Assembly: GCF_020880415.1 (NCBI RefSeq)
Contig: NZ_JAJIUJ010000020.1
Span: forward strand, 1-53,351
Direction of reading: 5' to 3'
Length of the DNA: 53,351 nucleotides
Source of the DNA: Xanthomonas euvesicatoria pv. euvesicatoria
Lineage (GTDB): Bacteria; Pseudomonadota; Gammaproteobacteria; Xanthomonadales; Xanthomonadaceae
Shown: in pieces, positions 14,736 to 52,930 of the stretch
How positions within the stretch are numbered: the stretch's first letter is position 1
Layout: the number at the start of each line of letters is the position of its first letter
Notes under the pieces: generated by a model
The model's input: only the letters and a program-made list of their open reading frames with translations
Databases searched by the model: none
What the model was told of the DNA's origin: nothing
Program-made: the position numbers and the translations under genes

Positions 14736-14771
14736 AAAAAGCCCCGCAGACCAGGGGGAGGTCGGCGGGGC
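14732..14771 (-). terminator. Rho-independent terminator of the sX13-like RNA
   Basis: On the minus strand GCCCCGC (14771-14765 side) pairs with GCGGGGC, extended inward by GACC/GGTC, and the stem is followed by TTTTTATTT (14740-14732). The loop CTCCCCCT is also one of the three C-rich seeds, so the terminator doubles as a regulatory hairpin. It may also end transcripts reading through from polA. Confidence 0.85.
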
Positions 14772-14857
14772 CAGGGAACGGAAACTTGGGGAGGAGTTTC
14801 CGCTCCGAGATCTGCTCCAGGGGATGGGAGAGATCTACCGACAGGCGTTGCGCCCGT
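14736..14857 (-). ncRNA. sX13: Small regulatory RNA with three C-rich hairpin loops, probable sX13
   Basis: The minus strand folds into a short 5' stem (CGAC-GGGCG/CGCC-GTCG, 14859-14838) and three strong stem-loops. Stem one is AGATCT..AGATCT at 14108+700 = 14808-14836 with loop CATCCCCT. Stem two is GGAAACT/AGTTTCC at 14780-14801 with loop CCTCCCCA. Stem three is the terminator at 14741-14771 with loop CTCCCCCT. All three loops are C-rich and look like anti-Shine-Dalgarno seeds. It lies downstream of polA on the same strand. This fits sX13 of Xanthomonas, an Hfq-independent virulence regulator of about 115 nt. The 5' end (near 14857) is inferred from TTATAT at 14869-14864; no good -35 is visible. 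Confidence 0.75.
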
Positions 14858-29518: not shown

Positions 29519-29970
29519 ACGTCCATTTCCCCTGAGACCATCCGGTGTTGCGCATGGCCGACGTGTCCCGCTGCACACGCAGGCGCCACGGCGGCGACTG
29601 CACGGCGATCGGCGTGTCTGACCTCGCCCCTTGCTGAACGTCGATCAAACCCCGACGTACATTTATGCAATGTTAGCAAGATTATTGCGATGAGCATCAC
29701 GATTATGAAGACCGCTGCCACCTGACTGCGCAGTTTGCGTGCGACCGGATGCGCCGACAGCGGGCCCGGCCGGGCATCAGGCGAACTCGGCAAGGCGTTG
29801 CGCAGGGTCACCCCCTGGGTCTGGCGGGCGGCGTCCAGTACGCGCCGACGGCGTGCGCGGTACTGCTCGCGGTCGAGTTGGCCCTGCTGATGCGCCAACG
29901 CCAGCGCCTGCAGCTGCGCATTGGCCGGGTGCGCAGCGGCAGCGGTGGGCGACGGCGGGGCGGCGCTCAC
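29509..29970 (-). CDS. Small single-TM protein with SHOCT-like N-terminal helix
   Basis: A 153-residue protein of unknown function starting at GTG 29970, whose GTGA overlaps the ppkA stop. A Pro/Ala-rich start leads into QLQALALAHQQGQLDREQYR, an SHOCT-like helix of the kind that mediates oligomerisation. One transmembrane segment follows (VAAVFIIVMLIAIILLTL), then a basic Arg-rich tail. The 3' end overlaps the tpsB start by about 10 bases. It therefore physically joins the T6SS kinase gene and the two-partner secretion genes in one coupled transcript. The tail beyond the TM has shadow-like composition, so the true C-terminus could be less meaningful than its length suggests. Confidence 0.7.
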   Translation of the reverse strand: MSAAPPSPTAAAAHPANAQLQALALAHQQGQLDREQYRARRRRVLDAARQTQGVTLRNALPSSPDARPGPLSAHPVARKLRSQVAAVFIIVMLIAIILLTLHKCTSGFDRRSARGEVRHADRRAVAAVAPACAAGHVGHAQHRMVSGEMDVCV

Positions 29971-33662: not shown

Positions 33663-33666
33663 GCAC

Positions 33667-34383
33667 TTACTCCTGCAGGCGGACGACGACGGCGGTGACG
33701 TTGTCGCGTGCCGCCCTCCCCATCGCCAATTCGAACAGACGCGCCAGCAGCGCGCGTGGATCGCCGAAGCGATGGCATTCGGCATCCAGCTCCGGGTCCG
33801 GGATTTCCTTGTTGATGCCGTCGCTGCACAGCAGAAACTGCGTGCCCGGCAGGCTCGGCGTCAGCACCCAATCGACGAACAGCGGCTCTTGCGCACCCAC
33901 CGCGCGCGTGAGCACGCCGGCCGCCGCGGCGCTGGCGTGTGCGCTGCCGAACTGGGTGACATCGTCGCGCACGCCGTGCACGTGGTCGCGGGTGAGCTGG
34001 CGCAGCGGGCCGCCATGCTGCGCGTAGATGCGGCTGTCGCCGACCCAGCCGCACAGCATGAAATCCGGGTCGTGCACCAGCACCACCACGGTGGTGGCGA
34101 TCATGTCCACGCGGCGCTCGCGCGCAACCTGCAGCAGCTCGCGATTGATCTGCGCCAGGGTGTCGTCGATGGCATCCAGGAAATCGCACAGGTCGGCCGG
34201 GCGCACCAATGCGCTCAGCCGCTGCACCAGCAGCTGGCTGGCGTAATCGCCGGCGCTGTGGCCACCCAGGCCATCGGCCACCACCCAGAGGCCGGCGTCT
34301 TCGCGCAGCAGCAAGGCATCTTCGTTGAGCCGGCGCACCTTGCCGGTTTCGGTGTGCCCAGCCGATTGGTAGGGCGCGCTCAT
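33667..34383 (-). CDS. pppA: PP2C-type protein phosphatase (PppA), T6SS regulator
   Basis: A 238-residue PP2C phosphatase. Metal-binding motifs are visible: NEDALL (Glu21/Asp22), VVADGLGGHSAGD (Asp38), CGWVGDSRIYA, LLCSDGINKEI and ARDNVTAVVV. It should dephosphorylate the PpkA target and reset T6SS assembly in the cytoplasm. ATG 34383 overlaps the tagF stop (ATGA), and ppkA follows four bases later, giving a coupled kinase-phosphatase pair. The length is typical for bacterial PppA/Stp. Confidence 0.93.
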   Translation of the reverse strand: MSAPYQSAGHTETGKVRRLNEDALLLREDAGLWVVADGLGGHSAGDYASQLLVQRLSALVRPADLCDFLDAIDDTLAQINRELLQVARERRVDMIATTVVVLVHDPDFMLCGWVGDSRIYAQHGGPLRQLTRDHVHGVRDDVTQFGSAHASAAAAGVLTRAVGAQEPLFVDWVLTPSLPGTQFLLCSDGINKEIPDPELDAECHRFGDPRALLARLFELAMGRAARDNVTAVVVRLQE

Positions 34384-39737: not shown

Positions 39738-41072
39738 TCAGCTCCGGATCGCCCACAGTTGCAGGTCCAGCCCGGCGAATTCGCTGCCGAAGTGGAATGC
39801 GATACCGCCGGAGGTCTTCAGCGTTCGCCACAACGCTGCGCTCTTGTCGAATTCGAAATACAGATAGCCGGCGTGATACGGAATCTGTCGCGGCGCCACC
39901 GGCATGGGCGTGGCCACGATGCCGGGCAACTGCAGATTGACCAGATCGCGAATCTGCTCCACCGGCCCGATCTTGGCGTGCGCGGGCAATTGCCGGCGCA
40001 ACTCTTCGCTGGGCATGTCGGCCTTGGCCGCGAGCACGAACGCCGCGCTGTCGAGCAGGCCCGGGTCCGGCACCATCGCCACCCACACGCCGAACTTGCG
40101 CGCCTGGATCGGCAGCGGCGTGGCGGTCTGTTCCAGCACTGCGCTCAGGCTGCTGCGCAGGGCGCCGATCACTGGCTCGAAACTGTCCTGCTGCGATTCG
40201 TGCCGATAGGCGGGCCATGCAGGGGGGCGCTTGCCGGCAGCGGTGAACGTGCTCAATTCGCCGGCCAGCGCCACCAGGGCGCGGAACAGCTCTTCCGGAT
40301 GCGCCAATGGCGCGGCGGCCCAATGCGCCATCTGCGGCTGCCAACGGTTGACCAGCTGTAGCAACAGAAAGTCTGCGATATCGGCAGCACCGCCGCGATC
40401 GGTCAGCGTCACGCGCGATGCCAGCGCTTCACCGCGCTGATGCAACAGGCCGAGCAGCTCGGTGAGAAACGTGGTCAAGCGCGGCGCCGCCTGGCACACC
40501 ATCGCGCTGGGAATGAAATGCGGGTCCAGCACCACCTGGCGGTCGGCGCGCGTCTCGATGATGCGCGCCACCGCGATGCGGTCCAGCCCTTCCAACGGCT
40601 GCGAGTGCGGCAGCAACCGCGTGCTCAACCCGCCGACTTCCATCAACACCGCTTCGCTGGTGCTACCGGAGGCGTCGTTGCTCTCGGTCTCGCGCACGCG
40701 GTAGCGAAACAGCTGATCGGCCGGCGATTCCGGGCGCCCCAGTTCGGGTTGCGCCGGCACCCGCAGCGGCACGGTGAGATAGACGATCTGGTCGCGGCAA
40801 GTGGGCTCGACCTCCAGCGCCACCGGCAGCGGGTCGTCGCAAGGCATGGCGAAGGGCGTGCCATCGGCGAACACGCCACGCGCACGCCGCAGGCCCAGCT
40901 TGCCGACCGCCAGCAGATCGGTCTCCCATTCCAGCTCGCTCACGCCCCAGGCATGGGGCCGCAACCGCGCCGCACGCAGGTCGACGTAGCGCTCCAGGTA
41001 GCGCTCCTGCTGCTGCAGATGCTGCGGGCGCAGGAACAGCCCTTCGCTCCACACGACCTTGTTGTTCTGCAT
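39738..41072 (-). CDS. tssK: Type VI secretion baseplate protein TssK
   Basis: A 444-residue protein of the TssK (ImpJ/VasE) family. Family landmarks are KVVWSEGLFLRPQHLQQQER at the N-terminus, RPHAWGVSELEWE, and the C-terminal LYFEFDKSAALWRTL. TssK is the trimeric baseplate adaptor that docks on the TssL-TssM membrane complex. ATG 41072 is fixed by the conserved N-terminus. It is the first gene of the long operon, with a 502-base upstream region containing one copy of the shared 17-bp motif. TssF and TssG, its usual baseplate partners, are not in the window. Confidence 0.96.
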   Translation of the reverse strand: MQNNKVVWSEGLFLRPQHLQQQERYLERYVDLRAARLRPHAWGVSELEWETDLLAVGKLGLRRARGVFADGTPFAMPCDDPLPVALEVEPTCRDQIVYLTVPLRVPAQPELGRPESPADQLFRYRVRETESNDASGSTSEAVLMEVGGLSTRLLPHSQPLEGLDRIAVARIIETRADRQVVLDPHFIPSAMVCQAAPRLTTFLTELLGLLHQRGEALASRVTLTDRGGAADIADFLLLQLVNRWQPQMAHWAAAPLAHPEELFRALVALAGELSTFTAAGKRPPAWPAYRHESQQDSFEPVIGALRSSLSAVLEQTATPLPIQARKFGVWVAMVPDPGLLDSAAFVLAAKADMPSEELRRQLPAHAKIGPVEQIRDLVNLQLPGIVATPMPVAPRQIPYHAGYLYFEFDKSAALWRTLKTSGGIAFHFGSEFAGLDLQLWAIRS

Positions 41073-41574
41073 GATCCACCCGCTGAGAAAAAGGTCGGCC
41101 ACCGATGCAGCGCACAGGCGTCCACACCGCGTTGCATGCGACTGCCAGGCATGCCTGCAGGAACGCCTGCGCGCTGCGTTGTCGGGTGCATTGAGCTGCG
41201 TTGCACGCGGCACGCCCGGCGGTCATTGCCGACGCAAGCGCCGCACCGCCGATGCGTGTCGGTGGAGCGATTCTGCGGCGCACCCAAGGTGGTCACCCGT
41301 CAAAACGTCTCAGGCGCCGTGCCCTGTCGGACAGGCACCAACGCCTGCGCCGCTGCCGTCAGCCGGTCACGTTGCGGTCATTGGGCGAGACGTTGGGCTG
41401 TGGGGCGCTGGCCGTGAGAGCAGGCCTGCGGTGTCGATGCGGCAGGCGCATCGTGGAGCGGCCAACAAGACCTCGCGAGTCGTCTGGGCGGCCTGGATGG
41501 TGCGTAGGCACCCGCCTGGCGATTGCGCGGAGACGGGTTGGCCGATCTCCATCGGCATGTTGCCACCCACCTTC
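41073..41574. other. Upstream region of the tssK operon, 3' flank of the aldo/keto reductase gene
   Basis: These 502 bases contain the motif at 41297-41313 and no gene I can support. The region is both the downstream flank of the inserted reductase gene and the upstream region of the long T6SS operon, and its promoter presumably lies here. Confidence 0.55.
41297..41313 (-). promoter_or_regulatory. Shared T6SS-cluster motif, copy A (upstream of tssK)
   Basis: On the coding strand the core reads CTGAGACGTTTTGACGG and continues GTGACC, identical at that extension to copy B upstream of the PAAR gene. It lies about 225 bases upstream of the tssK ATG. It is the least conserved copy in the central bases (TTTTGAC versus AATTGTC). 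A role as a transcription signal is inferred from recurrence and position. Confidence 0.55.
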
Positions 41575-42465
41575 CTATTGAGCGCCACTGGCCTCGGCAG
41601 CGATGCCATCGAGCGTTGCGACCTGCTCGGCCGACAGGCTCAGCTCGGCGGATGCGAAGTTCTCGCGCAGGTGCGGCACCGACGATGTTCCCGCGATGAC
41701 CAGGATGTTGGGCGAGCGCTGCAGCAGCCATGCAAGTGCAACCTGCTTCGGCGTCGCGCCTACCTGCCTGGCAACGCCCGACAGCAGCTCCGACTGCAGG
41801 GGCGAAAAGCCGCCGAGCGGAAAGAACGGAACATAGGCCACACCCTGTTGCGCGAGCATCTCGATGAAGGCGTCGTCGTCGCGCTTGACCAGGTTGTACT
41901 GGTTTTGAACGCAGACGATGCTGGCCAGTGTTTGCGCTTGTTCGAACTGTCGCGCAGTGACGTTGCTCAAGCCGATGTGGCGTACGAGGCCCTCGCGTTG
42001 CAGCTCGGCCAGGCACGCGACCGGTTCGGCGATCGAACGCTCGTCGGTGTCCATTGCCGTGCCCAGCCTCACGTTGACCACGTCCAGTGTCTCCAGGCCG
42101 AGGCTCTGCAGGTTTTCATGCACCTGCCGCCTCAGGCTTGCAGGCGACACATCGATATTCCACGAAGCATCGGGGCCACGGCTGAAACCGATCTTGGTCA
42201 CGATGACCAGATCGCTGCGATAGGGATGCAGTGCTTCGCGGATGAGTGCGTTGGACACATCGGGGCCGTAGAACTGCGCGGTGTCGATGTGGTTGGCGCC
42301 CAGGGCGATTGCTTCGCGCAACACCGACAAGGCCGATGCCTTGTCGCGCGGAGGTCCCCAGACATGCGGTCCGGGTAACTGCATGGTTCCGTAACCCATC
42401 CGATTGATGGCAAGGGTGGTGCCGGGCAGGGTCAATGTGCCGCCAAGGGGCTTGCCGCTGTTCAT
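41575..42465 (-). CDS. Aldo/keto reductase
   Basis: A 296-residue cytosolic NADPH-dependent oxidoreductase of the AKR superfamily. The tetrad residues Asp61 and Tyr66 (NHIDTAQFYGPD) and Lys91 (VIVTKIGFS) are visible. So are RHIGLSNVTARQFEQAQ and the cofactor-binding ending SPNILVIAGTSSVPHLREN. It resembles the group of AKRs controlled by divergent LysR regulators; the substrate is unknown. ATG 42465 has AAGGA seven bases upstream. It sits with the divergent LysR gene between tssK and tagH and has no evident T6SS role, so it looks like an insertion. Confidence 0.93.
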   Translation of the reverse strand: MNSGKPLGGTLTLPGTTLAINRMGYGTMQLPGPHVWGPPRDKASALSVLREAIALGANHIDTAQFYGPDVSNALIREALHPYRSDLVIVTKIGFSRGPDASWNIDVSPASLRRQVHENLQSLGLETLDVVNVRLGTAMDTDERSIAEPVACLAELQREGLVRHIGLSNVTARQFEQAQTLASIVCVQNQYNLVKRDDDAFIEMLAQQGVAYVPFFPLGGFSPLQSELLSGVARQVGATPKQVALAWLLQRSPNILVIAGTSSVPHLRENFASAELSLSAEQVATLDGIAAEASGAQ

Positions 42466-42693
42466 GGGAATCCTTTTGGTGTGTATCCGGGTGATGTGCC
42501 AAACCGCCGCGTGTGTTGGGACACGCCGAGATTGCGACGGGATCTTTCGCGTGGCTTGAAGAAGCAAGAAGCAACGCGGGACGTGCGCTGCGGCGACTAC
42601 GTGGCCGCTGCCGCGGCGCAAGGGAACTGTACGTAGGCCACCCTTGTGCGACAATCCGGCACAAAGCGGACGGGCCGTACGGATTGCCGAACA
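42466..42693. promoter_or_regulatory. Divergent AKR-LysR intergenic region
   Basis: This 228-base gap separates the two divergent genes and is the expected binding site for the LysR protein. LysR boxes (T-N11-A) are too loose for me to assign one. No strong inverted repeat is evident by eye. Confidence 0.45.
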
Positions 42694-43596
42694 ATGAGCG
42701 GTCACCTGGCAGACATGGAGGCTTTCGTGCGCGTGGCGCGCGCGGGAGGGTTTCGAGAAGCCGCCAAGAGCGCGGGTGTGAGCGCATCGACCTATAGCGA
42801 TGCGATCAAGCGAATGGAGGCATCGCTCGGCGTGCGGCTGTTCAACCGCACCACACGCAGCGTGGTGCTCACCGATGCAGGCAATGCGTTGTTGGCACGC
42901 ATCGCGCCCGCCTTGCTGGAACTGGAGAACGCCAGGGAGGTGGTCAGCGCCTTTCGTGATACGCCGACCGGCACGCTGCGGCTGAACGTGCCGGTCAGTG
43001 CCGCGCGCCTGGTGCTGCCGAGGATCCTGCCGGCGTTTATGGCGGCGTACCCGGACATCACGCTGGAGATCCTGACCGAAGAAAGTTTTGTCGACGTGAT
43101 CGCCGCACGCTGCGACGCCGGTATCCGCTATGGCGAACGGCTGCAGCAGGACATGGTGGCCATCCCGATCGGCCCGCGCGTGCAACGCATCGCAACGGCG
43201 GCTGCGCCAGGCTACCTGGACCGGCGCGGACGCCCCACCCACCCGCGGGAACTCGTTGCCCACGACTGCATCCGCGGGCGCTTCCCAAGCGGCGTCATTG
43301 CAGAGTGGGAGTTCGAGCGCGACGGTGAAGTGGTCACCATCGTTCCGCAGGGGCAATTGCTGGTGGAGATCGGCGGCGGGATCGAGCTGGCGATCCAGGC
43401 GGCGATCGCCGGAAGCGGCATCCTGCATCTGTTCGAACAATGGCTGCAGCCGCAGTTCGACGCAGGTGCGCTTGAACCCATCCTGCGCCCGTGGTGGCAG
43501 CCATTCCAGGGCCCGTACCTGTACTACCCCAATCGCACCCTCACACCGCCGGCGCTGCGCGCCTTCATCGAGTTCGTCAAGACTCTGCCTGACTAG
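42694..43596 (+). CDS. LysR-family transcriptional regulator
   Basis: A 300-residue regulator. The N-terminal winged helix-turn-helix (residues 5-65) has MEAFVRVARAGGFREAAKSA, SASTYSDAIKRMEASLGVRL and FNRTTRSVVLTDAG. A C-terminal effector domain follows (GTLRLNVPVSAARLVLPRIL, DAGIRYGERL). It belongs to the CrgA-like group by appearance and probably controls the divergent aldo/keto reductase in response to an unknown ligand. I chose ATG 42694; ATG 42715 (MEAFV) is an alternative. It is one of only two plus-strand genes in the T6SS region, the other being at the right edge. Confidence 0.92.
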   Translation: MSGHLADMEAFVRVARAGGFREAAKSAGVSASTYSDAIKRMEASLGVRLFNRTTRSVVLTDAGNALLARIAPALLELENAREVVSAFRDTPTGTLRLNVPVSAARLVLPRILPAFMAAYPDITLEILTEESFVDVIAARCDAGIRYGERLQQDMVAIPIGPRVQRIATAAAPGYLDRRGRPTHPRELVAHDCIRGRFPSGVIAEWEFERDGEVVTIVPQGQLLVEIGGGIELAIQAAIAGSGILHLFEQWLQPQFDAGALEPILRPWWQPFQGPYLYYPNRTLTPPALRAFIEFVKTLPD

Positions 43597-43654
43597 CGCG
43601 CTGGCAACGCCGCCGGTGTGCCCGTGCAGACGGCACGCGATTGGATGAAGCGTT

Positions 43655-44986
43655 CTAGATCCCGCGCCCCGCCGGCTGCCGCCGTGCCGATTTCAGGCGC
43701 GCCAGTTGCGCTTCGTAGGCACGCGCGAACTCATCGCCGAACAGGCGACGGAAGCATTCGTCCGGGTCGCTGCGTAGCTGCTCGAAGTTGTCGCGGTAAC
43801 GCTCCCAGTAACGCCCCTTGCCACCGAAACTCAGGCGCTTGCCGCCGGCGTCGGCTTCCTGCTCCAGGCGGTCCGGGCTGAAGTGGAACAGCATGGCGTC
43901 GAAGGCTGCGCGCATGCCGGCCAGCATCGCCATCTGATGGCAGCGGATATCGTCGAAGGCATCTTCGAACGCTGGCACGCCGGACAGAAACGACGCGCTT
44001 GGCGGTGCGAGCAACTTCTGCAGCGCATCTTCGGCGGTGGCGGCGAACTTGAGCGGATTGTTCTCCGAGCGCTGGATCACCGTGACCGGCAGCCGGAAGG
44101 TGTTCTTGATCTCCGCGCGTGCACGCAGCACGTCCATGACGCCGTCGACCACGATGGCGAAGATGCGATCCAGCTCCGGCGGCACCGTCGTTGCCGCCGA
44201 TGCTGCGGCTGCAACCGGCGCCGCCGGCGACGTGAATGGCGAAACCACCGGCGCGGCCATGGGCGATACCGCAGGCAATGGCGCGGGTGGCGCAAAATCG
44301 CCAAGCGTCATGTCCCAGTTTTCCGGCAAGGTGGCACGTGCATCGGGACTGGCCGGCGGACGGAAATGGTCGTGGCGGGCGTTGCTCTGATTCCACGCGC
44401 TGGGGCTGGCATCGCGCGCCGGCGCAGGCAACGGGTCGAGCAGGCGCAACGGATCCAGCTCGCGGGATGCGCCGCTCAGCAGCAATTCGTCCAACACTGC
44501 GTCCACCGCAGGCCGCGCCGCAGGCGGCGTGCCGAACTCCAGCAGCTCGAAGCCCGCTGTGGCGGAGGGGGCACGCAGCGTCGACGGCGGTGGCGCAACC
44601 TGGGTGCGGTCGTCCATCGCATCTGGCAGCGGGTCGAACACCGGTGTTGCCGGCGATGCTGCGGCCAGCGATTGCACCTGCACCTGGATCTCGAAGCTGT
44701 CCAGCTGCAGGCGGTCGCCATCGCTGAGCGCGGACGGGTCCGCACGCGTCAGCGCAGTGCCGTTGAGCGACATGCCGTTGGTGCTGCGGTCTTCGATGAA
44801 ATACATCCCGTTGAGGAAGCGCACCACCGCATGCGTGCGCGAGACACCGGGCGCGGCCAGGACCCAATCGCTTTCGTCGGAGCGGCCGATGCTGCCGCCG
44901 GTGCCGGCAAAGCGCTTCTGCGCGCTGGCGCCGAACTGCGCGGCCTGCGCGCCGCTGACGGTGAGGATCAACTGCGAACTGGACAC
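43655..44986 (-). CDS. tagH: FHA-domain T6SS scaffold protein (TagH/Fha)
   Basis: A 443-residue cytosolic protein. The N-terminal FHA domain (about residues 30-105) has GGSIGRSDESDWVLAAPGVS, RTHAVVRF and STNGMSLNG, the phosphothreonine-binding loops. A Pro/Ala-rich linker of about 200 residues leads to the T6SS-specific C-terminal domain (FRLPVTVIQRSENNPLKFAA, and RLSFGGKGRYWERYRDNFEQ). It is the expected target of PpkA and partner of PppA. Its upstream region carries the diverged copy D of the shared motif. It is separated from the tssK operon by the AKR/LysR pair. Confidence 0.93.
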   Translation of the reverse strand: MSSSQLILTVSGAQAAQFGASAQKRFAGTGGSIGRSDESDWVLAAPGVSRTHAVVRFLNGMYFIEDRSTNGMSLNGTALTRADPSALSDGDRLQLDSFEIQVQVQSLAAASPATPVFDPLPDAMDDRTQVAPPPSTLRAPSATAGFELLEFGTPPAARPAVDAVLDELLLSGASRELDPLRLLDPLPAPARDASPSAWNQSNARHDHFRPPASPDARATLPENWDMTLGDFAPPAPLPAVSPMAAPVVSPFTSPAAPVAAAASAATTVPPELDRIFAIVVDGVMDVLRARAEIKNTFRLPVTVIQRSENNPLKFAATAEDALQKLLAPPSASFLSGVPAFEDAFDDIRCHQMAMLAGMRAAFDAMLFHFSPDRLEQEADAGGKRLSFGGKGRYWERYRDNFEQLRSDPDECFRRLFGDEFARAYEAQLARLKSARRQPAGRGI

Positions 44987-45305
44987 GCCATGGACTCCTG
45001 CATACGGTGATCGGAAGGTGCGACTGGCATGCGTGTATGTCGGCAGAAAACGCTGCGTGCGTCATTGCCGGTGGAGGGCATGCGGCAAACGGATATCGCC
45101 TGCGCTGGAGCACAGTCGCAAATGCTGATCGCCGTGCGCCCCCGCGCTGTCGGTTCGGCACCAAGGCTTCTTCTGGTGCTGCAGCTTGGCGTGTGTGCCG
45201 CATCCAACCATGCTTTGGAACACCAGCTGCGTCTCGCGCAGTTGGCGCCGATGCCGTGCCCACGATGTGCCGCGCGCGGATCGCCACTCCGACAATTAGT
45301 CAACT
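44987..45305. other. Upstream region of tagH
   Basis: These 319 bases contain the motif copy D at 45289-45305 near their right end and no gene. They separate tagH from the vgrG-coupled small gene. The tagH promoter is expected here. Confidence 0.5.
45289..45305 (-). promoter_or_regulatory. Shared T6SS-cluster motif, copy D (upstream of tagH)
   Basis: The coding strand reads AGTTGACTAATTGTCGG. The right part AATTGTCGG is identical to copy B, and GAC three bases to its left is kept, while the CTGA end has diverged. It ends one base before the stop codon of the upstream gene and lies about 300 bases from the tagH ATG. Confidence 0.45.
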
Positions 45306-45854
45306 TCATGGCGCCCCCACACTGGTCAGCAACTCCATGGCATGCGCTGCATAGCCGCTGCGCCGCGCCTCCAGCTGCGCCGGCTCACGCGCGGCCAGCA
45401 AGGTGATGGCCGCGGCCACCGCGCGCGCCGTGAGATGGTCGGCCGGCGGCACCGGCGTGGTCTGTTGCGGCGGCGCCAGGCTGCCGCCGGACCAGGCCAC
45501 TGCCGCAGCCAGCCACGCGCCCAGCGAGACATAATCGCCGGCATGCGCAAATGCCTGCGCGGCGCGACGATGCGCCTCGCTGGGCTCGCGCACCCACTTC
45601 TCGGCCAGTGCCGCGCCGGCGCGGTCTTCCTCGTCCAGGGTTTCGCCGCGCACGCATTGGCACAGCCAGGCCACCGCGTAGCGCTTGGGCAGCAGGCGCG
45701 CGAGCAGCTTGATGGCATCTTCGCCATGACCGCTGGCCAGCAGCGCGCTGACCGCCGCCTGCGGCGTGATCGGCGTACTAAGCTGTGCGCAGGCCGGCGC
45801 AGACAGCTGCATCTGCGCACAGGCCTGCGCCAGCGAGAGCGTGGGCGCGCTCAT
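45306..45854 (-). CDS. Small helical protein coupled to vgrG, function unknown
   Basis: A 182-residue helical protein not recognised with certainty. It may belong to a family of uncharacterised T6SS-linked proteins (DUF6931-like). Features visible are ALLASGHGEDAIKLLARLLP, KRYAVAWLCQCVRG and a C-terminal helix AAAITLLAAREPAQLEARRS. There is no signal peptide or membrane segment. Its ATG overlaps the vgrG stop (ATGA), so it is made with VgrG. That position often holds an adaptor, chaperone or effector. Absence of any toxin motif favours an accessory or adaptor role. Confidence 0.75.
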   Translation of the reverse strand: MSAPTLSLAQACAQMQLSAPACAQLSTPITPQAAVSALLASGHGEDAIKLLARLLPKRYAVAWLCQCVRGETLDEEDRAGAALAEKWVREPSEAHRRAAQAFAHAGDYVSLGAWLAAAVAWSGGSLAPPQQTTPVPPADHLTARAVAAAITLLAAREPAQLEARRSGYAAHAMELLTSVGAP

Positions 45855-47818
45855 CCGATCATGATCAGGCCGCCGCCGACCTGCACCAAGGCGTCGGCCT
45901 TGATGCTGACCAGCGGGCCCTTGAGCGTGGCCGAGGCACCGGCTTCGGCGCTGAGCATGCCGCCGGAGGTCAGTTTGAGCGTGGCATCGCCAGCCACCTC
46001 GGTGGCCGGCGATTTGGCCTGCAGCTGTGCATTGGCCAACAGCTTGATGGCGGTGGAGGTGATCTTGGCCTCCGAGCTGGCATCGACCAGGATCTTGATG
46101 CCGCTCAACACGATCTCGCCGTTGTGTTTCATCACCAGCCGCGCGCTGCCGGTCACCAACTCGATCTCTTCGCCGGCTTTCAGCAGCAGCTTCTTGCCGA
46201 CCTCCACGCTGTCGTTGTTGTCGATCCGCGCACGACGGTCGTGCTTGACCGCCAGGACCCGATCGTTGTCGATGGTACTGGTGTGGTCGTGCTGCACCTC
46301 TTCGCGCAAATCGCGCTGCGCGCGCAGGTAGAGTTCTTCCGCGCCGGCCTTGTCGTCGAAACGCAACTCGTTGAAATCGGCAGCGCCGCCCAGCAGGCTG
46401 CGGCTGCGCACGCCGCTTTGGGTCTTGTTATCGGGCAAGGAAAACGGCGGCGCATGGTCGCCGTTGTAGACGCTGCCCACGATCAACGGGCGGTCCGGGT
46501 CGCCTTCCAGAAAGCTCACCACCACTTCCTGCCCCACGCGCGGCAGGCTCATTGCGCCCCAGCCCTTGCCCGCCCACATCGAAGCCACACGCACCCAGCA
46601 CGACGGCGCGGCATGCGGGCGTGCCGCAGTGGCCCAGTGAAAGGTCACCTGCACGCGGCCATGCGCATCCACCGCAATGTCCTCGTCGGTGTCGCCGGTC
46701 ACCACCGCCGTCTGCAGGCCGGCAATGGTTGGCGTTGCGGTGCGTTGCAGGCTACGGAACGGCAGCCGGCTTTCCATCACCTGCACGCTGCTGGAAAACG
46801 GCGGCTCGCCGCTGCCGTGTTCGGGCGCGGCCAGCGTGGTGTGCGCCGACAGCACCAGATATTCCTGATTGAGTTCGGCGCGCGGGAACCCGCGCAAGCG
46901 AAACAAGGCACCGACCATCAGGCCGCAGGCATTGGTGGTGGCTGCATGGCTGGCGCGCTGCACGTTGTGCGCCTCGGTGCGCACCTGCATGTAGCGACGA
47001 CCGTCGGCCTGCACGGTATGCGCGCCGGGGTAGTCGAAGGCGATCAGACCATCGACGGTGTGCAACTGTTCGCCGCCGGCATCGGCATCGGCGGCCAGCG
47101 ATGCACGCGGCTGCAGCGGGTCGTAGTCGGTGCTGCCATGCTGGCTGGAATGCACGCCGCGCGCACTGCGCCAATGGCTCACCACCGAGCGCATCAGGCG
47201 CCGGTCATCGGTTCCCGGCGGCACATAGGGCAGGCTGTCCACGCCGTTTTTCGTTGCATGCGCACCCAGTGCATCGGCCAGCACCAACGTATGCGCACTG
47301 CGGGTGTGGGTGAAGTAGTAGTAGATGCCTTCGCGTTCCAGCAGCCGGCTGATGAAGCTGAAATCGTCCTCGCGGTATTGCACGCAGTAGGTGCGCTTGG
47401 CGTACTGCGCGCTCAACTGCTGCTGCACATCGCCGTAGCCGATCTCGCCCAGCACGCTGGTGACGATCTCCGGCACGCTCATGTCCTGATAGATGCGGCA
47501 ATCGCGGCGCTGGGTCAGCAGCCATGGTTTGGGCACCACCTGCAGTTCAAGCACGGCGTAATCGAGCGCATCGACCACGGCGTAGCCGTTGTGCGCGCAA
47601 CTGGCCACCATGCCGTGATACCAGCGCTGTTCGCCCTCGCCATCGGCCAGCTGCACCGCCACTGGCGTGCCAAGCAGATCACGCAGGTTGGGCTGCAGTT
47701 CGGTGCACAACGCATCGATGCGGTAGTCGAACAGCTGCCCCAACGCTTCGCTGGCCTGCATGCGATGCAGCAGCAGGCGCTCGCCAAGGTCGGAGTGCAG
47801 CGTGATGGTGCGCGGCAT
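45851..47818 (-). CDS. vgrG: Type VI secretion spike protein VgrG (TssI)
   Basis: A 655-residue spike protein. The gp27-like N-terminal part has LFDYRIDALCTE, CVQYREDDFSFISRLLEREG and IYYYFTH. The OB-fold and gp5-like part has WVRVASMWAGKGWGAMSLPR, VGQEVVVSFLEGDPDRPLIV and GSVYNGDHAPPFSL. A beta-helix needle closes the protein (VEVGKKLLLKAGEEIELVTG, ending GGGLIMIG). There is no C-terminal effector extension, so cargo must be separate. ATG 47818 is chosen over ATG 47830 because GTGGA lies seven bases upstream. Motif copy C lies about 140 bases upstream. Confidence 0.96.
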   Translation of the reverse strand: MPRTITLHSDLGERLLLHRMQASEALGQLFDYRIDALCTELQPNLRDLLGTPVAVQLADGEGEQRWYHGMVASCAHNGYAVVDALDYAVLELQVVPKPWLLTQRRDCRIYQDMSVPEIVTSVLGEIGYGDVQQQLSAQYAKRTYCVQYREDDFSFISRLLEREGIYYYFTHTRSAHTLVLADALGAHATKNGVDSLPYVPPGTDDRRLMRSVVSHWRSARGVHSSQHGSTDYDPLQPRASLAADADAGGEQLHTVDGLIAFDYPGAHTVQADGRRYMQVRTEAHNVQRASHAATTNACGLMVGALFRLRGFPRAELNQEYLVLSAHTTLAAPEHGSGEPPFSSSVQVMESRLPFRSLQRTATPTIAGLQTAVVTGDTDEDIAVDAHGRVQVTFHWATAARPHAAPSCWVRVASMWAGKGWGAMSLPRVGQEVVVSFLEGDPDRPLIVGSVYNGDHAPPFSLPDNKTQSGVRSRSLLGGAADFNELRFDDKAGAEELYLRAQRDLREEVQHDHTSTIDNDRVLAVKHDRRARIDNNDSVEVGKKLLLKAGEEIELVTGSARLVMKHNGEIVLSGIKILVDASSEAKITSTAIKLLANAQLQAKSPATEVAGDATLKLTSGGMLSAEAGASATLKGPLVSIKADALVQVGGGLIMIG

Positions 47819-47954
47819 CGAAGCATCCACAGGTGATGGGGCAACGCACGTTGCGCTGACCGACGGCGCCGCGTTGCGCCCGCGCGTGCAACGTCAGGCG
47901 GCTAAAGGCACGGCAACTGTCACGCGCATGCTCACATGCGTGCGTGCAGCAAAG

Positions 47955-47971
47955 CCGACATTTCGTCTCAG
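47955..47971 (-). promoter_or_regulatory. Shared T6SS-cluster motif, copy C (upstream of vgrG)
   Basis: The coding strand reads CTGAGACGAAATGTCGG, differing from copy B at one base. It overlaps the stop codon (47968-47970) of the TPR-methyltransferase gene and lies 137 bases upstream of the vgrG ATG. Its conservation cannot be explained by the coding sequence of the upstream gene alone, because an unrelated gene end carries copy B. Confidence 0.6.
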
Positions 47972-49299
47972 GCTGGCCCAGGCGTGCGCGCGGTCACGAC
48001 CCAGCCGTGCACCGGCTGGCCACGTTCGCTGCGCAGCACGTCCAGTTCCAACGCGATCGGCTGCAAACCGGCGCCTTGCAATGCGGCGCGCACGTGCGCA
48101 TGGCTGTGCCGATAGCGCCCGCTGGCATCGAGTTCGACCCGGTCGTCCGGCTCGTCCAGCGCTTCGACCGTGAAACCCAGCACGCCCCCTGGCGTGAGCG
48201 CGCCGGCAGCGGCAGCGAGCACCGGCTGCAGCGCGCCGAAGTACACCAAGGTGTCGGCCGAGCCGATCACATCCCACTGCGCGTGCTGCGCGTGCAGGTA
48301 TGCGGTGAGTTCGGCGACCTCCAGCCGATCGTAGCCACCGCGTTGGCGTGCCTTGGCGACCATGCCAGGCGACAGGTCCACGCCCACCAGTTGATGTGCA
48401 TACGGGCGCCACAGCGGCGCACACAGCCCGGTGCCGCAGCCGGCATCGAGCATGCGCAGGCCCGCATGCGGTGGCGCAAGGCAGGCCGCCAGTGCCTTGG
48501 TCAGCCGTTGCGGCGCGCGGTACTCCAGGTGATGCAGCAACTGTTCGTCGAAACTGTCGGCAAAGCCATCGAACAGTTCACGCACATAGGTATCGCCGGC
48601 ACGCGGCGGCGGTTCGGCGCCGCCACAGGCCGCCAGCATATGCGTTGCCACCGGGTTGCCCGGCTCAAGCGTGAGCCAGTCGCGATACACCGTTTGCGCC
48701 TGCGCATGCTCGCCCAACAGGTAGAGCCCGGTGCCCAGCGCCTCGCGGGCGTGCAGGTGGTCCGGTGCCAGCGTGCAGGCCTGCTGCAGGCACTGCACCG
48801 ATTGCTGCAGATGCTCGGCGGCCTGCGCGTTGTTGCGCAGGAACAGGCCGAGCAGGTAATGCGCATGCGCGGACTGCGGATAGGTGTGCAACAGCGCCGC
48901 GTAGGTGACGAAGGCTTCTTCGCTGCGCCGCTGCGCTTCCAGCACCGCTGCCAGATTCGCCAGCGCGTCGGCATGTGCAGGCGCCAGCGCCAGTGCGCGG
49001 CGATAGCAGTGTTCGGCATCGCGCAGGCGGCCGCATTCGCGGTGCACGTTGCCCAGGTTGTTGCAGGCATCCGGTTGCGCGGGCGCCAGCGTCAACGCCT
49101 GGGTGATGGAGGCCACCGCCGCGGCGCTGTTGCCGCGCTGATGCAACAGGATGCCCTGGTAATGCAGCGCGTCGGCGTGCGCGGGCTGATCGTCCAGCAG
49201 CTGCGTGTACAGCTGCGCGGCATGTTCGAGTTGGCCACTGCGGTGCGCGGCGATCGCCTGCTGCAGTGGCTCGGTAAGTGGCTGTGGCGCAGTTTGCAT
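47968..49299 (-). CDS. TPR-repeat protein fused to a SAM-dependent methyltransferase
   Basis: A 443-residue two-part protein. Residues 10-245 are TPR repeats (ADALHYQGILLHQRGNSAAA, PDACNNLGNVHRECGRLRDA, AHADALANLAAVLEAQRRSE). Residues 283-443 form a class I methyltransferase with the SAM-binding motif MLDAGCGTG and the acidic end VGVDLSPGM. It probably methylates a small molecule or protein recruited by the TPRs; the substrate is unknown. ATG 49299 has GGAG nine bases upstream. It lies between the PAAR and vgrG genes on their strand, so a role in T6SS spike or effector handling is plausible but unproven. TPR-methyltransferase fusions also occur outside T6SS. Confidence 0.87.
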   Translation of the reverse strand: MQTAPQPLTEPLQQAIAAHRSGQLEHAAQLYTQLLDDQPAHADALHYQGILLHQRGNSAAAVASITQALTLAPAQPDACNNLGNVHRECGRLRDAEHCYRRALALAPAHADALANLAAVLEAQRRSEEAFVTYAALLHTYPQSAHAHYLLGLFLRNNAQAAEHLQQSVQCLQQACTLAPDHLHAREALGTGLYLLGEHAQAQTVYRDWLTLEPGNPVATHMLAACGGAEPPPRAGDTYVRELFDGFADSFDEQLLHHLEYRAPQRLTKALAACLAPPHAGLRMLDAGCGTGLCAPLWRPYAHQLVGVDLSPGMVAKARQRGGYDRLEVAELTAYLHAQHAQWDVIGSADTLVYFGALQPVLAAAAGALTPGGVLGFTVEALDEPDDRVELDASGRYRHSHAHVRAALQGAGLQPIALELDVLRSERGQPVHGWVVTARTPGPA

Positions 49300-49534
49300 G
49301 AGCTTCTCCAAGGACACGGCAACCGGTGGTGCGGGTACGAATGTGAGCGCGGAATGGCAGGGCGTCATGTCTGCAACGAGCCGCCAACAGCACGACCGTG
49401 GTGCCGATGCGCCGGGGCGGCCACCGCCTGGCATCGCCGCGGGCGCCGGCAGGCTTGAGTACCGGCGCATGCGCGCCACGGGCAGACAACTGGCGGCGGC
49501 CTGCCACCGGCCACCAGCCGCCGCCACGCAGTAC

Positions 49535-49822
49535 TCACCCGATCAACACGGTGAAGCAGCCCAGGGTGATCACCCCGCCATGCGCGGTGCTGTCGCCCAG
49601 TCGCGCGGCAGGCTGACCTGCGATCAACACGGTCGGTGCGCCGGCCACGATGCTGTCCGGCGGGCCGACGCATACGGCCATGTCGCCCCGCCGCGCCGCC
49701 GGCAGGCCGCCGATCAATACCGTTGGCGCGCCGGGGCTGACGATCGGCCCGCCCACATGCGGCACCACCCCGGTCACCATGGGGCAGACATGCAAATCGG
49801 TCAGGCGCGCAGCAGGTTGCAT
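49535..49822 (-). CDS. PAAR-domain spike-tip protein
   Basis: A 95-residue protein that is a bare PAAR domain with the repeated pattern PAARLTDLHVCPMV, GAPTVLIGGLPAARRGDMAV, GAPTVLIAGQPAARLGDSTA and HGGVITLGCFTVLIG. His and Cys residues (HVCP, CVGP, HGG, GCF) could form the zinc site at the tip. It caps the VgrG trimer. ATG 49822 begins just before the PAAR motif. There is no effector domain attached, matching the effector-free VgrG. Motif copy B lies 58 bases upstream. Confidence 0.95.
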   Translation of the reverse strand: MQPAARLTDLHVCPMVTGVVPHVGGPIVSPGAPTVLIGGLPAARRGDMAVCVGPPDSIVAGAPTVLIAGQPAARLGDSTAHGGVITLGCFTVLIG

Positions 49823-49879
49823 CGGCACGCTTCGGTCGTTGCCATGCACGGCACTATCCCGCCAGGCCGCAGCGGTCAC

Positions 49880-49896
49880 CCGACAATTCGTCTCAG
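49880..49896 (-). promoter_or_regulatory. Shared T6SS-cluster motif, copy B (upstream of the PAAR gene)
   Basis: The coding strand reads CTGAGACGAATTGTCGG followed by GTGACC. It overlaps the stop codon of the kinase gene (49893-49895) and lies 58 bases before the PAAR ATG, the closest of the four copies. About 22 bases further on is GATAGT, a possible -10 element, which would give a 5' leader of some 25 bases. Confidence 0.6.
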
Positions 49897-52394
49897 CGCT
49901 GCGCCACCGAGGTGGTGGTCTGTGCCTCGCTGGTATCCACCGGCGGCGTCGCCAACGCCAGGGTCTGGCGCGCCGCGCGCAGGGGCTGGTCTGCATTGCC
50001 GAAAATGCCGGTAAGAATCTGCAATGCCTGCTGCGCGTGGTCGCGCGCGGCCACGGTCTGGCCCAGCCTGCGCTCGGCTTCGGACATGCCGCGCAGGATC
50101 TCGGCCGTTTGCGGATGCGCGCGCCCCAGCACACGCTCCGAGGCAGCAAGCGCGGCGCGCTGTTCGGCCAGCGATGCTTCCACCTGGCCGTCGTCCAGCA
50201 GCCAGAACGCATGGTTGCTGCGATAGGCGATGGTGGCCGGTGCATCGTTGCCGAAGGCCGCGCGTGCGCGCTCCAGCGTCCTGCGGTAGTACGGCCCGGC
50301 TTCGGCCAGCTTGCCCTGCTGGCGCAACGCGCCGGCCAGGTTGCCTTCGACCATCAAGGTGTCGGCGGCACTCTCGCCATACAACGCGCGTGCGACCTGC
50401 AGCAGCGGGACGAGTTCGGCTTCGGCACCGGCAAAGTCGCGCTGCATCAGCAGGAACACTGCCAGGCTGTTGCGCATCGACACCACCAATGGATGCTCGG
50501 GCCCGTGCATGGCCATGCGCTCGCGCAACAGGCTGCGCTGCAAGGCGATCGCCGGTACCAGCTGGCCGTTATCGGCCAGCATGGCGGCGTAGCTGTTGCC
50601 GGCGTCGATACGCTGGTCCGCGCTGCTGGAGGCATTGGCCAGCGCGGCGACATAGGCATGCCGGCTCTCTGCCAACGCATCGCGCATGCGGCCCTGTTCG
50701 CGCAGGGCCCACGCCAACCAGGCACGCAGCTCGTTGCCCATGGCCTGCTGTTGCGCATCGCCGCGTGCTGCCTGCGCAATGCCCTGGCGCAAGACGCGCT
50801 CGGCATCGCCTGGTTTGCCGTCGCCAGTGAGCGCCTGGCCCAGCATGGACGTGGCCTTCAAGGCCGGCAGGCTGCCCGCACCGGCAGTCTGCTGCGCCAG
50901 GGTCTGTGCGATGCGCAGATGCTCCACGGCCTGCGCAAAATTGGCCAGCGCAATGAGCGTGCGGCCCAGCGTCAGTTCCACCTGGGTGCGCGCATCGGGC
51001 TGGTCGGCCAGTTCGCGCGCCGCACGCTGCGAGGCCTGCTGCAGCACGCGCAGCATCAGGGTCTTGTCCAGGTCGCGCGCCACGCCAGGGTCCACGCTGG
51101 ACAACACCGAACTCATGAAATCGCCGGTGACCTGCGCACGTTGCGCATCGCGCGCGGCCTGCTGCAGCGACCACAGCGTGGCCCCCAGCCCGGCGACCAC
51201 GGCAACCGCAGCGAGGCCGGCGGCGGCGACGCCGCTGCGATGGCGCTGGGTGAACTTGCGCAGCCGCAGCCAGCGGCTCGCCTGCAGGGCGCGCGGCGGG
51301 TAGCCGTCCAGCCAGCGATGCAGATCGTCCAGCAATGCGGACACCGATGCGTAGCGCGCGCCCGGCTGCGGCTCCAGCGCGCGCAATACGATCGCATCCA
51401 GCCCGTCGCGCAGGTGCTCGTGTAGTTTCTGGTAGGTGGTCGCGCGCGCCGCGCAGATGCGTGCACGCGCATCGGCCGGCACTGTTGCCAGCCGCTGCGA
51501 CGGCGGCTGCGGCACCCCGTCGCGCCCGGCCACCGGCGCCAGCCCGCAACTCAATTCGTAGAACATCGCTCCCAAGGCATAGATATCGCTGCGTGCATCC
51601 ACATCCGGCGCGCCGCGTGCCTGCTCCGGGCTCATGTAACCCGGCGTGCCGCGATCGTGCGCGTAGGTCATCCCCGGGTTGGTCGCATCGATGGCGATGC
51701 CGAAGTCGATCACCCCTGGCATCGGCCGCCCGTCGATCTCGCTGACCAGTACGTTGCTGGGTTTGAGATCGCGATGGATCACGCCCTTCTGATGCGCGTG
51801 CTGGACCGCCTCGCTGACACGCAGCATCACCAACACGCGCGCATGCAGCGACAGGCGGTGTTGGTCGCACCACCAGGTGATCGGCTCGCCGCGCAGGTAT
51901 TCCATCACCAGGTACGGCTGGCCGTGGGCATCGGTGCCCACGTCGTGGATCTGCGCGATCGCCGGGTGCACCATCTGCGCCAGCAGCCGGCACTCGAATT
52001 CGAACAGTGCACGGCCCTGCGCATCCAGCGCATCGGCGGCCACCAGCTTGATCGCCACCTCGCGCTCGTACGCGCCATCGGCACGGTGGCCCAGATACAC
52101 CTGGCCCATGCCGCCGGCGCCGATCAGGCGATCGATCGCCCAGGCACCGAAGCGCGTGCCGGCCGGCAGTTCCGGTAACGGCGCACGCAATGCGGCGGCG
52201 GCCTGTTTCAACGGCGCCCGCACGCGCAAGGTGGCCTGCGATTCCACTGCCAGCATCGCCAGCAATTGGTCGCGCACGCTGGCGTCGTCGCCGGCCTGCG
52301 CGCGCGCAAATGCCTCGCGCTCGGCGGCAGGCAACTGGCAGGCCTGATGAAACAAGGCTTCCAGACGTTGCCACGCGGTGGCGGCCAGGCTCAC
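49893..52394 (-). CDS. pknS: Transmembrane Ser/Thr kinase with periplasmic TPRs, partner of the ECF sigma factor
   Basis: An 833-residue protein starting at GTG 52394, whose GTGA overlaps the sigma factor's stop. The cytoplasmic kinase domain (about 85-360) has GAGGMGQVYLG, Lys116 (VAIKLV), Asp209 in HRDLKPSN, Asp230 in DFGIAI and GTPGYMSPEQA. One TM follows (VAAAGLAAVAVVAGLGATLW). The outer part is a row of TPR-like repeats (ALKATSMLGQALTGDGKPGD, TLMVEGNLAGALRQQGKLAE), a likely sensor. In the X. citri group the kinase PknS activates the ECF factor EcfK and the T6SS; this pair matches in order, coupling and domains. The symbol is by that analogy. Confidence 0.9.
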   Translation of the reverse strand: MSLAATAWQRLEALFHQACQLPAAEREAFARAQAGDDASVRDQLLAMLAVESQATLRVRAPLKQAAAALRAPLPELPAGTRFGAWAIDRLIGAGGMGQVYLGHRADGAYEREVAIKLVAADALDAQGRALFEFECRLLAQMVHPAIAQIHDVGTDAHGQPYLVMEYLRGEPITWWCDQHRLSLHARVLVMLRVSEAVQHAHQKGVIHRDLKPSNVLVSEIDGRPMPGVIDFGIAIDATNPGMTYAHDRGTPGYMSPEQARGAPDVDARSDIYALGAMFYELSCGLAPVAGRDGVPQPPSQRLATVPADARARICAARATTYQKLHEHLRDGLDAIVLRALEPQPGARYASVSALLDDLHRWLDGYPPRALQASRWLRLRKFTQRHRSGVAAAGLAAVAVVAGLGATLWSLQQAARDAQRAQVTGDFMSSVLSSVDPGVARDLDKTLMLRVLQQASQRAARELADQPDARTQVELTLGRTLIALANFAQAVEHLRIAQTLAQQTAGAGSLPALKATSMLGQALTGDGKPGDAERVLRQGIAQAARGDAQQQAMGNELRAWLAWALREQGRMRDALAESRHAYVAALANASSSADQRIDAGNSYAAMLADNGQLVPAIALQRSLLRERMAMHGPEHPLVVSMRNSLAVFLLMQRDFAGAEAELVPLLQVARALYGESAADTLMVEGNLAGALRQQGKLAEAGPYYRRTLERARAAFGNDAPATIAYRSNHAFWLLDDGQVEASLAEQRAALAASERVLGRAHPQTAEILRGMSEAERRLGQTVAARDHAQQALQILTGIFGNADQPLRAARQTLALATPPVDTSEAQTTTSVAQR

Positions 52395-52930
52395 AGCTGC
52401 GCCGCCAGCCACACCCTGGCAAAGCGCAGATCGCGCTCCAGCGTCGGCACCGACACCTCCAGCTGTTCGGCGGCCTCGGCCACGCTGAAGCCCACCAGCT
52501 CGGTCAATGCGAATGCACGGGCCTTGCGCTCGTCCACCTGGGCCAGCTTGTCGAAGGCATCGGCCACCAGCATCAATGCCTCCGGCCGTGCGGCGCCGTC
52601 GGACAGGCTGAGGGTCAGCGTCACCGCCTGCCCCAACCGTTTGGCGCTGGCCTGCTGGCGCGCCAGATCCACCAACAGGTGGCGCATCTGCAGCGCAGCC
52701 ACCGAATAGAAGTGCGCCCGCGAACGAAAACCCTGCTGGCCCTGTTCCAGCCGCATCCAAGCCTCGTGCACCAGCTCGGTCGCCTGCAAGCCAGCGCGCC
52801 CGTCGCGACGCAGCTCGCGCATGGCGGTGGCGCGCAACACGTCATAGACCTGGCGCGCCAAGGCGTCGCCCGCGCCGGGTTCGTCGCGCTGCCAGGCCTG
52901 CAATAACTCGGTGATCGGCAGCTCGGACAT
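52391..52930 (-). CDS. ecfK: ECF sigma factor of the kinase-linked (ECF43) type
   Basis: A 179-residue sigma factor. Region 2 spans about residues 20-95 (LQATELVHEAWMRLEQ, RSRAHFYSVAALQMRHLLVD) and region 4 about 125-178 (LTELVGFSVAEAAEQLEVSV, PTLERDLRFARVWL). In most ECF factors region 2.2 has a DAED-like acidic motif that binds the polymerase beta-prime subunit; here it reads QATE with Thr51. In this group phosphorylation of that threonine by a partner kinase supplies the missing charge. The kinase gene follows with a GTGA overlap. It likely directs T6SS genes; its own upstream region lacks the shared motif. The symbol is by analogy with X. citri. Confidence 0.9.
   Translation of the reverse strand: MSELPITELLQAWQRDEPGAGDALARQVYDVLRATAMRELRRDGRAGLQATELVHEAWMRLEQGQQGFRSRAHFYSVAALQMRHLLVDLARQQASAKRLGQAVTLTLSLSDGAARPEALMLVADAFDKLAQVDERKARAFALTELVGFSVAEAAEQLEVSVPTLERDLRFARVWLAAQL

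What the first reader, a model, noticed from the sequence alone, without database searches (positions are those of the whole stretch)
41297..49896. A 17-bp motif recurs at four intergenic sites of the T6SS cluster
Reading the coding (minus) strand upstream of four transcription units, I find CTGAGACGTTTTGACGG (41297-41313, before tssK), AGTTGACTAATTGTCGG (45289-45305, before tagH), CTGAGACGAAATGTCGG (47955-47971, before vgrG) and CTGAGACGAATTGTCGG (49880-49896, before PAAR). Copies A and B also share GTGACC just downstream. Copies B and C overlap stop codons of unrelated genes, so coding constraint does not explain the match. In all four, an A at 23 and a T at 27 bases past TGTCGG/TGACGG coincide, hinting at a distant second element. 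I infer a regulon signal, perhaps the promoter or an accessory site read by the ECF sigma factor encoded at the right end, or an operator for another regulator. It is absent upstream of that sigma gene. I do not know of a described motif of this form.
Basis: partly seen in the sequence, partly recalled or inferred. Interest (0 to 1): 0.85.

Follow-up and report, generated by a model that had tools for sequence, protein, structure and literature searches.

The report
Shared promoter code for T6SS operons
[quoted passage not shown] it is likely the promoter read by the kinase-controlled sigma factor EcfK or its relatives, and would let one predict from sequence which genes are switched on together with this weapon.

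Summary
The element is 19 bp, YTGAGACG-AWW-TGWCGGST, then 20 bp, then A-N3-T. The genome holds two further strong copies, before tssB (main T6SS operon) and before a small secreted protein; the strict 17-mer occurs 5 times, 0 in the reversed control, 0.02 expected. The site stands before tssB in 24 fetched genomes of four genera, vgrG in 23, tssK in 21; 35 of 36 hits among 84,980 species genomes are Xanthomonadales. In Xanthomonas it follows ecfK, even where no T6SS was found (12 of 12 against 1 of 7). Outside, the 11 T6SS-site genomes tested all carry a strong PF07638 (ECF43-like) sigma factor, absent from 17 motif-free congeners, though mostly not beside the T6SS. Most likely it is the promoter of the EcfK/ECF43 regulon (0.6). 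A separate activator at about -42 is the main rival, because the block reaches further upstream than an ordinary ECF -35.

The parts
41295..41313 (-). site A, 19-bp upstream block CTGAGACGTTTTGACGGGT, before tssK
   Evidence: site before tssK in 21 genomes
41270..41275 (-). predicted -10 of site A (CAGAAT), A and T at the conserved spacing
   Evidence: start point itself predicted
39738..41072 (-). tssK (T6SS_VasE), ATG at 41072, about 190 nt after the predicted start point
47953..47971 (-). site C, 19-bp block CTGAGACGAAATGTCGGCT, before vgrG; its TGA is the stop of the TPR-methyltransferase ORF
   Evidence: site before vgrG in 23 genomes
47928..47933 (-). predicted -10 of site C (GAGCAT)
45851..47818 (-). 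vgrG, ATG at 47818
49878..49896 (-). site D, 19-bp block CTGAGACGAATTGTCGGGT, before PAAR; its TGA is the stop of pknS
49853..49858 (-). predicted -10 of site D (GATAGT)
49535..49822 (-). PAAR protein, ATG at 49822, about 24 nt after the predicted start point
49893..52760 (-). pknS ORF (Ser/Thr kinase with TPR repeats); true start probably further in
52391..52930 (-). ecfK (PF07638 ECF sigma factor, 179 aa, QATE in region 2.2 as reported for X. citri EcfK); no motif copy found before it
   Evidence: PMC13147305 passages

Best explanation
The motif is likely the promoter signature of the EcfK (ECF43-type sigma factor) regulon: a 19-bp block predicted to lie at about -50 to -32 plus an A-N3-T element predicted to be the -10. 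Shown: the element, its nearly fixed spacing, its position before tssB, vgrG, tssK and PAAR over four genera, and its co-occurrence with ecfK or another strong PF07638 sigma factor. From the literature (X. citri, abstract and passages of PMC13147305): PknS phosphorylates EcfK and active EcfK induces the T6SS genes. Inferred: phosphorylated EcfK would bring RNA polymerase to these sites and start the operons together; the GG at offset 15-16 would be the -35 core at -35/-34 and the A-N3-T the -10; the TGAGAC half further upstream would be either an extended -35 or the seat of a partner protein. In genera without a linked ecfK another ECF43-type factor would read the same sites in trans.
For: Specificity: 52 strict matches in 24 of 35 genus genomes, 0 in the reversed control (2 of the 52, G001 and G003, lie in an interval where they are not promoters). 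84,980 species genomes: 36 stretches, 31 Xanthomonas, 3 Luteimonas, 1 Luteibacter, 1 Bradyrhizobium (records near the window's genome may be left out by the tool); the 3 Luteimonas hits stand before tssB, the Luteibacter stretch has sites before vgrG, tssK and PAAR, the Bradyrhizobium hit is beside no T6SS gene searched for. Footprint: tssB site in 24 genomes, vgrG 23, tssK 21, PAAR at least 18, block and A/T kept while flanks and spacer letters diverge. Not a general T6SS box: no site within 1.5 kb of tssC in the sister T6SS of G282 (TssC 79% identical) or in four clusters at 68-69%. EcfK link: regulon-type sites in 28 of 28 ecfK-bearing Xanthomonas against 1 of 7; among those with no T6SS cluster found beside ecfK 12 of 12. 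Outside: PF07638 at 114 bits or more in 11 of 11 T6SS-site genomes tested, at most 35.2 bits in 20 motif-free ones, 17 of them congeners. T at the -12 place is rare (8 of 49 aligned), unlike a housekeeping -10 (recalled). A scan for sigma-70 promoters over 40900-50100 finds 0, with 1.0 expected.
Against: In g7 (4 genomes), G062 and G415 the T6SS cluster has the motif but no PF07638 gene; their unlinked factors are 35-44% identical to EcfK, and the second factors of g7 (three looked at) gave no EcfK alignment at 1e-6. No site lies in the five 14-20 kb stretches read round such factors; in G062 the nearest is 17 kb away. Genomes with an EcfK 58-60% identical (G245, G256) have no site within 2 mismatches, and ECF relatives are common in the family without the motif. 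G005 keeps one intact site without ecfK, and G002 a decayed one (24.5 bits) beside an ecfK fragment. The block reaches about -50, beyond the usual ECF -35 (recalled). No start point, binding or mutant data for these sites were available. Genomes share ancestry, so the counts and the p values overstate independence; the sites were classed as regulon-type or noise by me.
Confidence: 0.6

Rival explanations
1. The 19-bp block is the binding site of an unidentified activator centred at about -42 (class II position) that recruits another sigma factor to the A-N3-T -10; EcfK would act upstream of, or beside, this activator.
For: Block of 19 bp with two strongly conserved halves about 10 bp apart (TGAGAC; GNCGG) suits a dimeric DNA-binding protein; centre near -42 if T43 is -7; A and T at -11 and -7 are the most conserved bases of housekeeping -10 elements (recalled); motif present in T6SS clusters without ecfK; G005.
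Against: T at -12 in only 8 of 49; a strong PF07638 factor in each of the 11 T6SS-site genomes tested outside the genus group; apart from EcfK no transcription-factor domain found in the cluster proteins scanned (not every ORF was scanned); among Xanthomonas without ecfK only G005 keeps an intact site.
Confidence: 0.25
2. Both: an ECF43 promoter (GGST -35 plus A-N3-T -10) with an adjacent activator or alpha-CTD half site TGAGAC that is needed as well, giving AND logic.
For: GG at offset 15-16 falls at -35/-34, the ECF -35 place (recalled), leaving TGAGAC at about -49 to -44 unexplained by a two-domain sigma factor. In the window the second half with the A/T pair occurs only at sites A, C and D, each time with TGAGAC.
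Against: No second regulator identified; the same co-occurrence of the halves fits one protein reading the whole block.
Confidence: 0.12
3. Chance or conserved DNA unrelated to transcription.
For: Site B is chance, and two near-match families recur without being promoters.
Against: 0.02 expected against 5 found; same operons in four genera.
Confidence: 0.03

Closest known systems
EcfK/PknS pathway of Xanthomonas citri (ECF43; PMC13147305 and PMC6653060, abstract and passages seen)
   Same: Same sigma-kinase pair beside the same kind of T6SS cluster, QATE in sigma region 2.2; active EcfK induces the T6SS genes there
   Different: No promoter sequence in the passages seen; the motif, its -10 partner, the extra target genes and its presence in clusters without ecfK are not described in them
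ECF41 promoter TGTCACA-n16-CGTC (PMC3426412, passages seen)
   Same: Bipartite ECF promoter whose upstream part begins TGTC, like the second half TGWCGGST here
   Different: Here a TGAGAC half is added upstream, the second element is A-N3-T, not CGTC, and begins about 20 bp after the block rather than 16
Activator-dependent (class II) promoters with a box at about -42 (recalled)
   Same: Length and position of the block, A and T of the -10
   Different: T at -12 rare; no candidate activator found

Membership tests
Promoter of an ECF43 sigma factor (EcfK regulon) | Target operons carry a shared bipartite element | tested here: met
Promoter of an ECF43 sigma factor (EcfK regulon) | Element present only where the sigma factor is present | tested here: inconclusive
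   28 of 28 against 1 of 7 in the genus, 11 of 11 outside by PF07638; but G005, the decayed G002 site, and outside the genus the factor is mostly not an EcfK ortholog
Promoter of an ECF43 sigma factor (EcfK regulon) | Transcription from the site depends on the sigma factor | not testable with these tools
   T6SS induction by EcfK is reported for X. citri (PMC13147305 passages), not mapped to sites in the passages seen
Promoter of an ECF43 sigma factor (EcfK regulon) | Autoregulation of the sigma gene (common, not universal; recalled) | tested here: not met
   none before ecfK in this genome; in G014 and G031 a site stands before a gene directly upstream of ecfK
ECF41-type promoter | TGTCACA, 16 +/- 1 bp, CGTC | tested here: not met
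   TGWCGGST, and no conserved CGTC at that spacing in 58 divergent sites; consensus from PMC3426412
Housekeeping sigma-70 promoter | TTGACA/TATAAT-like hexamers | tested here: not met
   0 found in 40900-50100, 1.0 expected; T at -12 in 8 of 49
Class II activator site | A DNA-binding protein that binds the block | not testable with these tools
   no candidate among the cluster proteins scanned

The most novel reading that the evidence does not exclude
One 43-bp promoter architecture has stayed fixed on a T6SS while the ECF43 sigma factor that reads it was exchanged between non-orthologous members (linked EcfK in Xanthomonas and G506; unlinked ECF43-like factors in other genera). In Xanthomonas that lost the T6SS, EcfK/PknS survives as a free-standing switch for a small regulon of secreted and patatin-like phospholipase proteins.
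Probability: 0.3. Interest if true: 0.75.

Novelty: new variant of a known kind. Interest (0 to 1): 0.58.

Why it matters
EcfK/PknS is a studied case of a sigma factor switched on by a eukaryotic-type kinase, yet no promoter for it appears in the papers searched. A motif with almost no background lets anyone list the likely regulon in any Xanthomonadales genome, find candidate targets outside the T6SS, and ask which protein reads a block longer than a normal ECF -35. It also shows where regulator and regulon have come apart: T6SS without ecfK, and ecfK without T6SS.

Tried and rejected
Site B (tagH): rejected by divergence in G027 and by absence from the other clusters scanned. Loose pattern with one mismatch: at control level. 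Near-matches at the 3' end of a MobA-like gene and between clp-like and aceA-like genes: recurrent but in convergent or opposite context, treated as noise (gene names by eye from the translations, no family search). EcfK ortholog in every motif genome: not so. Motif as a general ECF43 box: not so, since genomes with an EcfK at 58-60% lack it. Motif as a general T6SS box: not so. Transcription factor inside the cluster: none besides EcfK among the proteins scanned. RNA element: Rfam finds only sX13 at 14735-14849. My notebook calls the EcfK-type cluster i3***; by passages of PMC9048695 it is more likely the one called i3*, so the report avoids these labels; the notebook also gives 39.5 bits as the highest motif-free PF07638 score, which belongs to a second hit in G062; the right figure is 35.2 (G008).

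Counts and rows set aside: the matrix was built from 43 site sequences after dropping those with a run of six A. One search is partly biased for the A/T pair, because some loci came from patterns that contain it, and it required GAGAC; rests, whose pattern lacks the pair. In the 28-of-28 count G009 (ecfK in two frames) counts as bearing ecfK, G002 (fragments) as lacking it; the listing was cut after G029, and G030 and G032-G034 were read, G031. T6SS absence in the 12 genomes rests on the stretches fetched round ecfK (at G010 and G029 the contig ends near ecfK), on the missing tssB-type site and, for those drawn, on TssC; G030 keeps tssB and its site. Of the 7 genomes without ecfK, TssC was looked for in G005, G008, G018 and G026 only. 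In one search G540 and G542 match G415 and G213 in scores and positions and were not counted twice; G541 (X. bonasiae) was counted outside the genus group because its sites match those of g7, its group not being told. The Bradyrhizobium genome (G539, best 30.2 bits) and the isolated matches G041, G112, G115, G342 were not counted as T6SS-site genomes.
Full report
Observation. In the whole own genome (5.31 Mb, 121 contigs) the strict pattern YTGAGACGWNWTGWCGG has 5 matches and the reversed control 0; 0.02 would be expected from base composition. A looser pattern with one mismatch is at control level (12 against 13).

Copy B fails. It shares GAC and TTGTCGG with the consensus but differs at 4 of 7 positions of TGAGACG, falls below the matrix threshold, and in G027, 92.8% identical over 181 bp, 7 of the 13 differences fall into its 17 bp; in the other relatives the alignment ends before it. 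In the same test the vgrG site C is kept with 0 or 1 changes in the relatives whose alignment covers it.

Element. Numbering the first base as offset 0, the conserved block runs from 0 to 18, YTGAGACG-AWW-TGWCGGST, followed by A at 39 and T at 43. On 32 distinct sites found without using the A/T, A and T are each present in 30. Of 58 sites whose downstream sequences are less than 60% alike, 42 have A-N3-T at exactly this spacing and 9 one base nearer (2 of them both, so 49 in all); the next best offset has 5. C14 and G15 are invariant there; GAGAC is too, but the scan required it. T at the -12 place is found in 8 of the 49. In the window, a search for the second half with the A/T pair alone gives exactly A, C and D. 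If T43 is -7, the block spans about -50 to -32. Predicted start points precede the start codons of tssK, vgrG, PAAR and tssB by about 190, 100, 24 and 190 nt.

Distribution. In the genus, 24 of 35 genomes hold 52 strict matches, with none in the control. A matrix scan of stretches round ecfK finds sites before tssB, vgrG, tssK and PAAR. With the relatives fetched later, tssB sites were seen in 24 genomes, vgrG in 23, tssK in 21 and PAAR in at least 18. Outside the genus, pattern scans of 297 family and 299 order genomes (overlapping sets) add G164, G272, G213, G300 (g7), G062 and G506 (g29) and G415 (g91) as T6SS-site genomes; isolated matches in G041, G112, G115 and G342 were not followed up. 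A scan of 84,980 species genomes gives 36 stretches: 31 Xanthomonas, 3 Luteimonas, 1 Luteibacter rhizovicinus, 1 Bradyrhizobium. The Luteimonas hits stand before tssB; the Bradyrhizobium one has none of the marker genes beside it. The sister T6SS with TssC 79% identical (read in G282 and, cut short by the contig, in G008; also present in this genome on C70) and four clusters at 68-69% have no such site near tssC.

Which regulator. EcfK of the window is a PF07638 ECF factor with QATE in region 2.2, as reported for X. citri EcfK (PMC13147305, passages). In the genus 28 of 35 genomes bear ecfK (27 without a frame break, though the match is partial in G029; G009 in two frames). Regulon-type sites within two mismatches occur in 28 of 28 of these and in 1 of the 7 others (G005); G002, with ecfK fragments, keeps a decayed site of 24.5 bits that is not counted. 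By the strict pattern the figures are 22 of 28 and 0 of 7, leaving out G001 and G003, whose strict match is not a promoter. Twelve of the 28 show no T6SS cluster in the stretches fetched beside ecfK but keep ecfK and all or part of pknS; in three whose surroundings were listed no T6SS core gene is seen. All 12 still have sites, before genes such as the small secreted protein, a patatin-like phospholipase (PF01734 in G023 and G029) and other short proteins. This ties the motif to ecfK rather than to the T6SS as such.

Outside the genus the picture is more complex. G506 has an EcfK at 60% and a PknS inside its cluster. The g7 clusters keep a PknS at 56-57% without an adjacent ecfK; in G062 and G415 neither was found in the cluster stretches read, and none of these six genomes has a PF07638 hit there. 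Yet PF07638 is found elsewhere or in the cluster at 114 bits or more in all 11 T6SS-site genomes tested (7, 4 more), and at no more than 35.2 bits in 20 motif-free genomes (13 of g91, 4 of g7, 3 Xanthomonas). The unlinked factors are 35-44% identical to EcfK where they align; those of g7 and G062 share most of its sigma-4 recognition helix. On the other side, G245 and G256 have an EcfK at 58-60% and no site within two mismatches, ECF relatives are common in the family without the motif, and no site stands in the five stretches read round unlinked factors. So an ECF43-like factor looks necessary but not sufficient.

Mechanism. The literature seen shows for X. citri that PknS phosphorylates EcfK and that active EcfK induces the T6SS genes (PMC13147305, abstract and passages). 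I take the motif as the promoter of this regulon. The GG at offsets 15-16 falls at -35/-34, where ECF factors read the GG of their -35 (recalled), and a TGTC-type -35 is known for ECF41 (PMC3426412, passages). Unexplained is the TGAGAC half at about -49 to -44, out of reach of a two-domain sigma factor as far as I know: an extended -35, or a partner. Hence the activator rivals are kept at 0.25 and 0.12.

Print. No description of this motif or of an ECF43 promoter was seen in the listings and passages of the library searched (with passages). The 2018 paper on EcfK, the 2020 paper on EcfP and the 2021 ECF re-classification are not held, so a motif published there would have been missed.

Noticed in passing
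G001, G003, G004, G009, G010, G016, G020-G023, G029, G030: Xanthomonas genomes that keep ecfK and all or part of pknS while no complete T6SS cluster was found beside them; a passage of PMC9048695 mentions a like remnant in X. arboricola.
   Followed up: partly
L165:10-1047, L178:1750-2787: Patatin-like phospholipases (PF01734) behind a motif copy in G023 and G029, where no T6SS was found beside ecfK.
   Followed up: partly
L152:1232-3501, L154:1088-2034: In G031 and G014 a motif copy stands before a gene that lies directly upstream of ecfK (674 aa with DnaJ-C11-like and fascin-like matches at or below the Pfam cut-off; 217 aa without match), a possible indirect autoregulation.
   Followed up: no
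L218, L221, L224, L228: g7 T6SS clusters keep a PknS at 56-57% identity but no adjacent ecfK: an orphan kinase.
   Followed up: partly
L179, L097, L100: ecfK is a fragment in G002, beside a decayed site resembling the PAAR one, and lies in two frames in G009.
   Followed up: no
upstream of tssB and secreted-protein sites, e.g. L017, L041: A second recurrent stretch like ATCACGCATCG some 10-20 bases upstream of many tssB and secreted-protein sites in Xanthomonas, seen by eye.
   Followed up: no
window 41072-41263, 47818-47921; L039 tssB leader: Predicted 5' leaders of 100-190 nt before tssK, vgrG and tssB.
   Followed up: no
G000:C70:47166-48728: A second T6SS with TssC 79% identical in the same genome; no motif match listed on that contig.
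   Followed up: partly
window 14735-14849: sX13 sRNA (RF02232, 140 bits).
   Followed up: no
window 29967-33785: Kinase with a C-terminal FGE-sulfatase domain beside a PP2C phosphatase, a T6SS PpkA/PppA-like pair.
   Followed up: no
window 41575-43440: An aldo/keto reductase-like ORF between the FHA gene and tssK.
   Followed up: no
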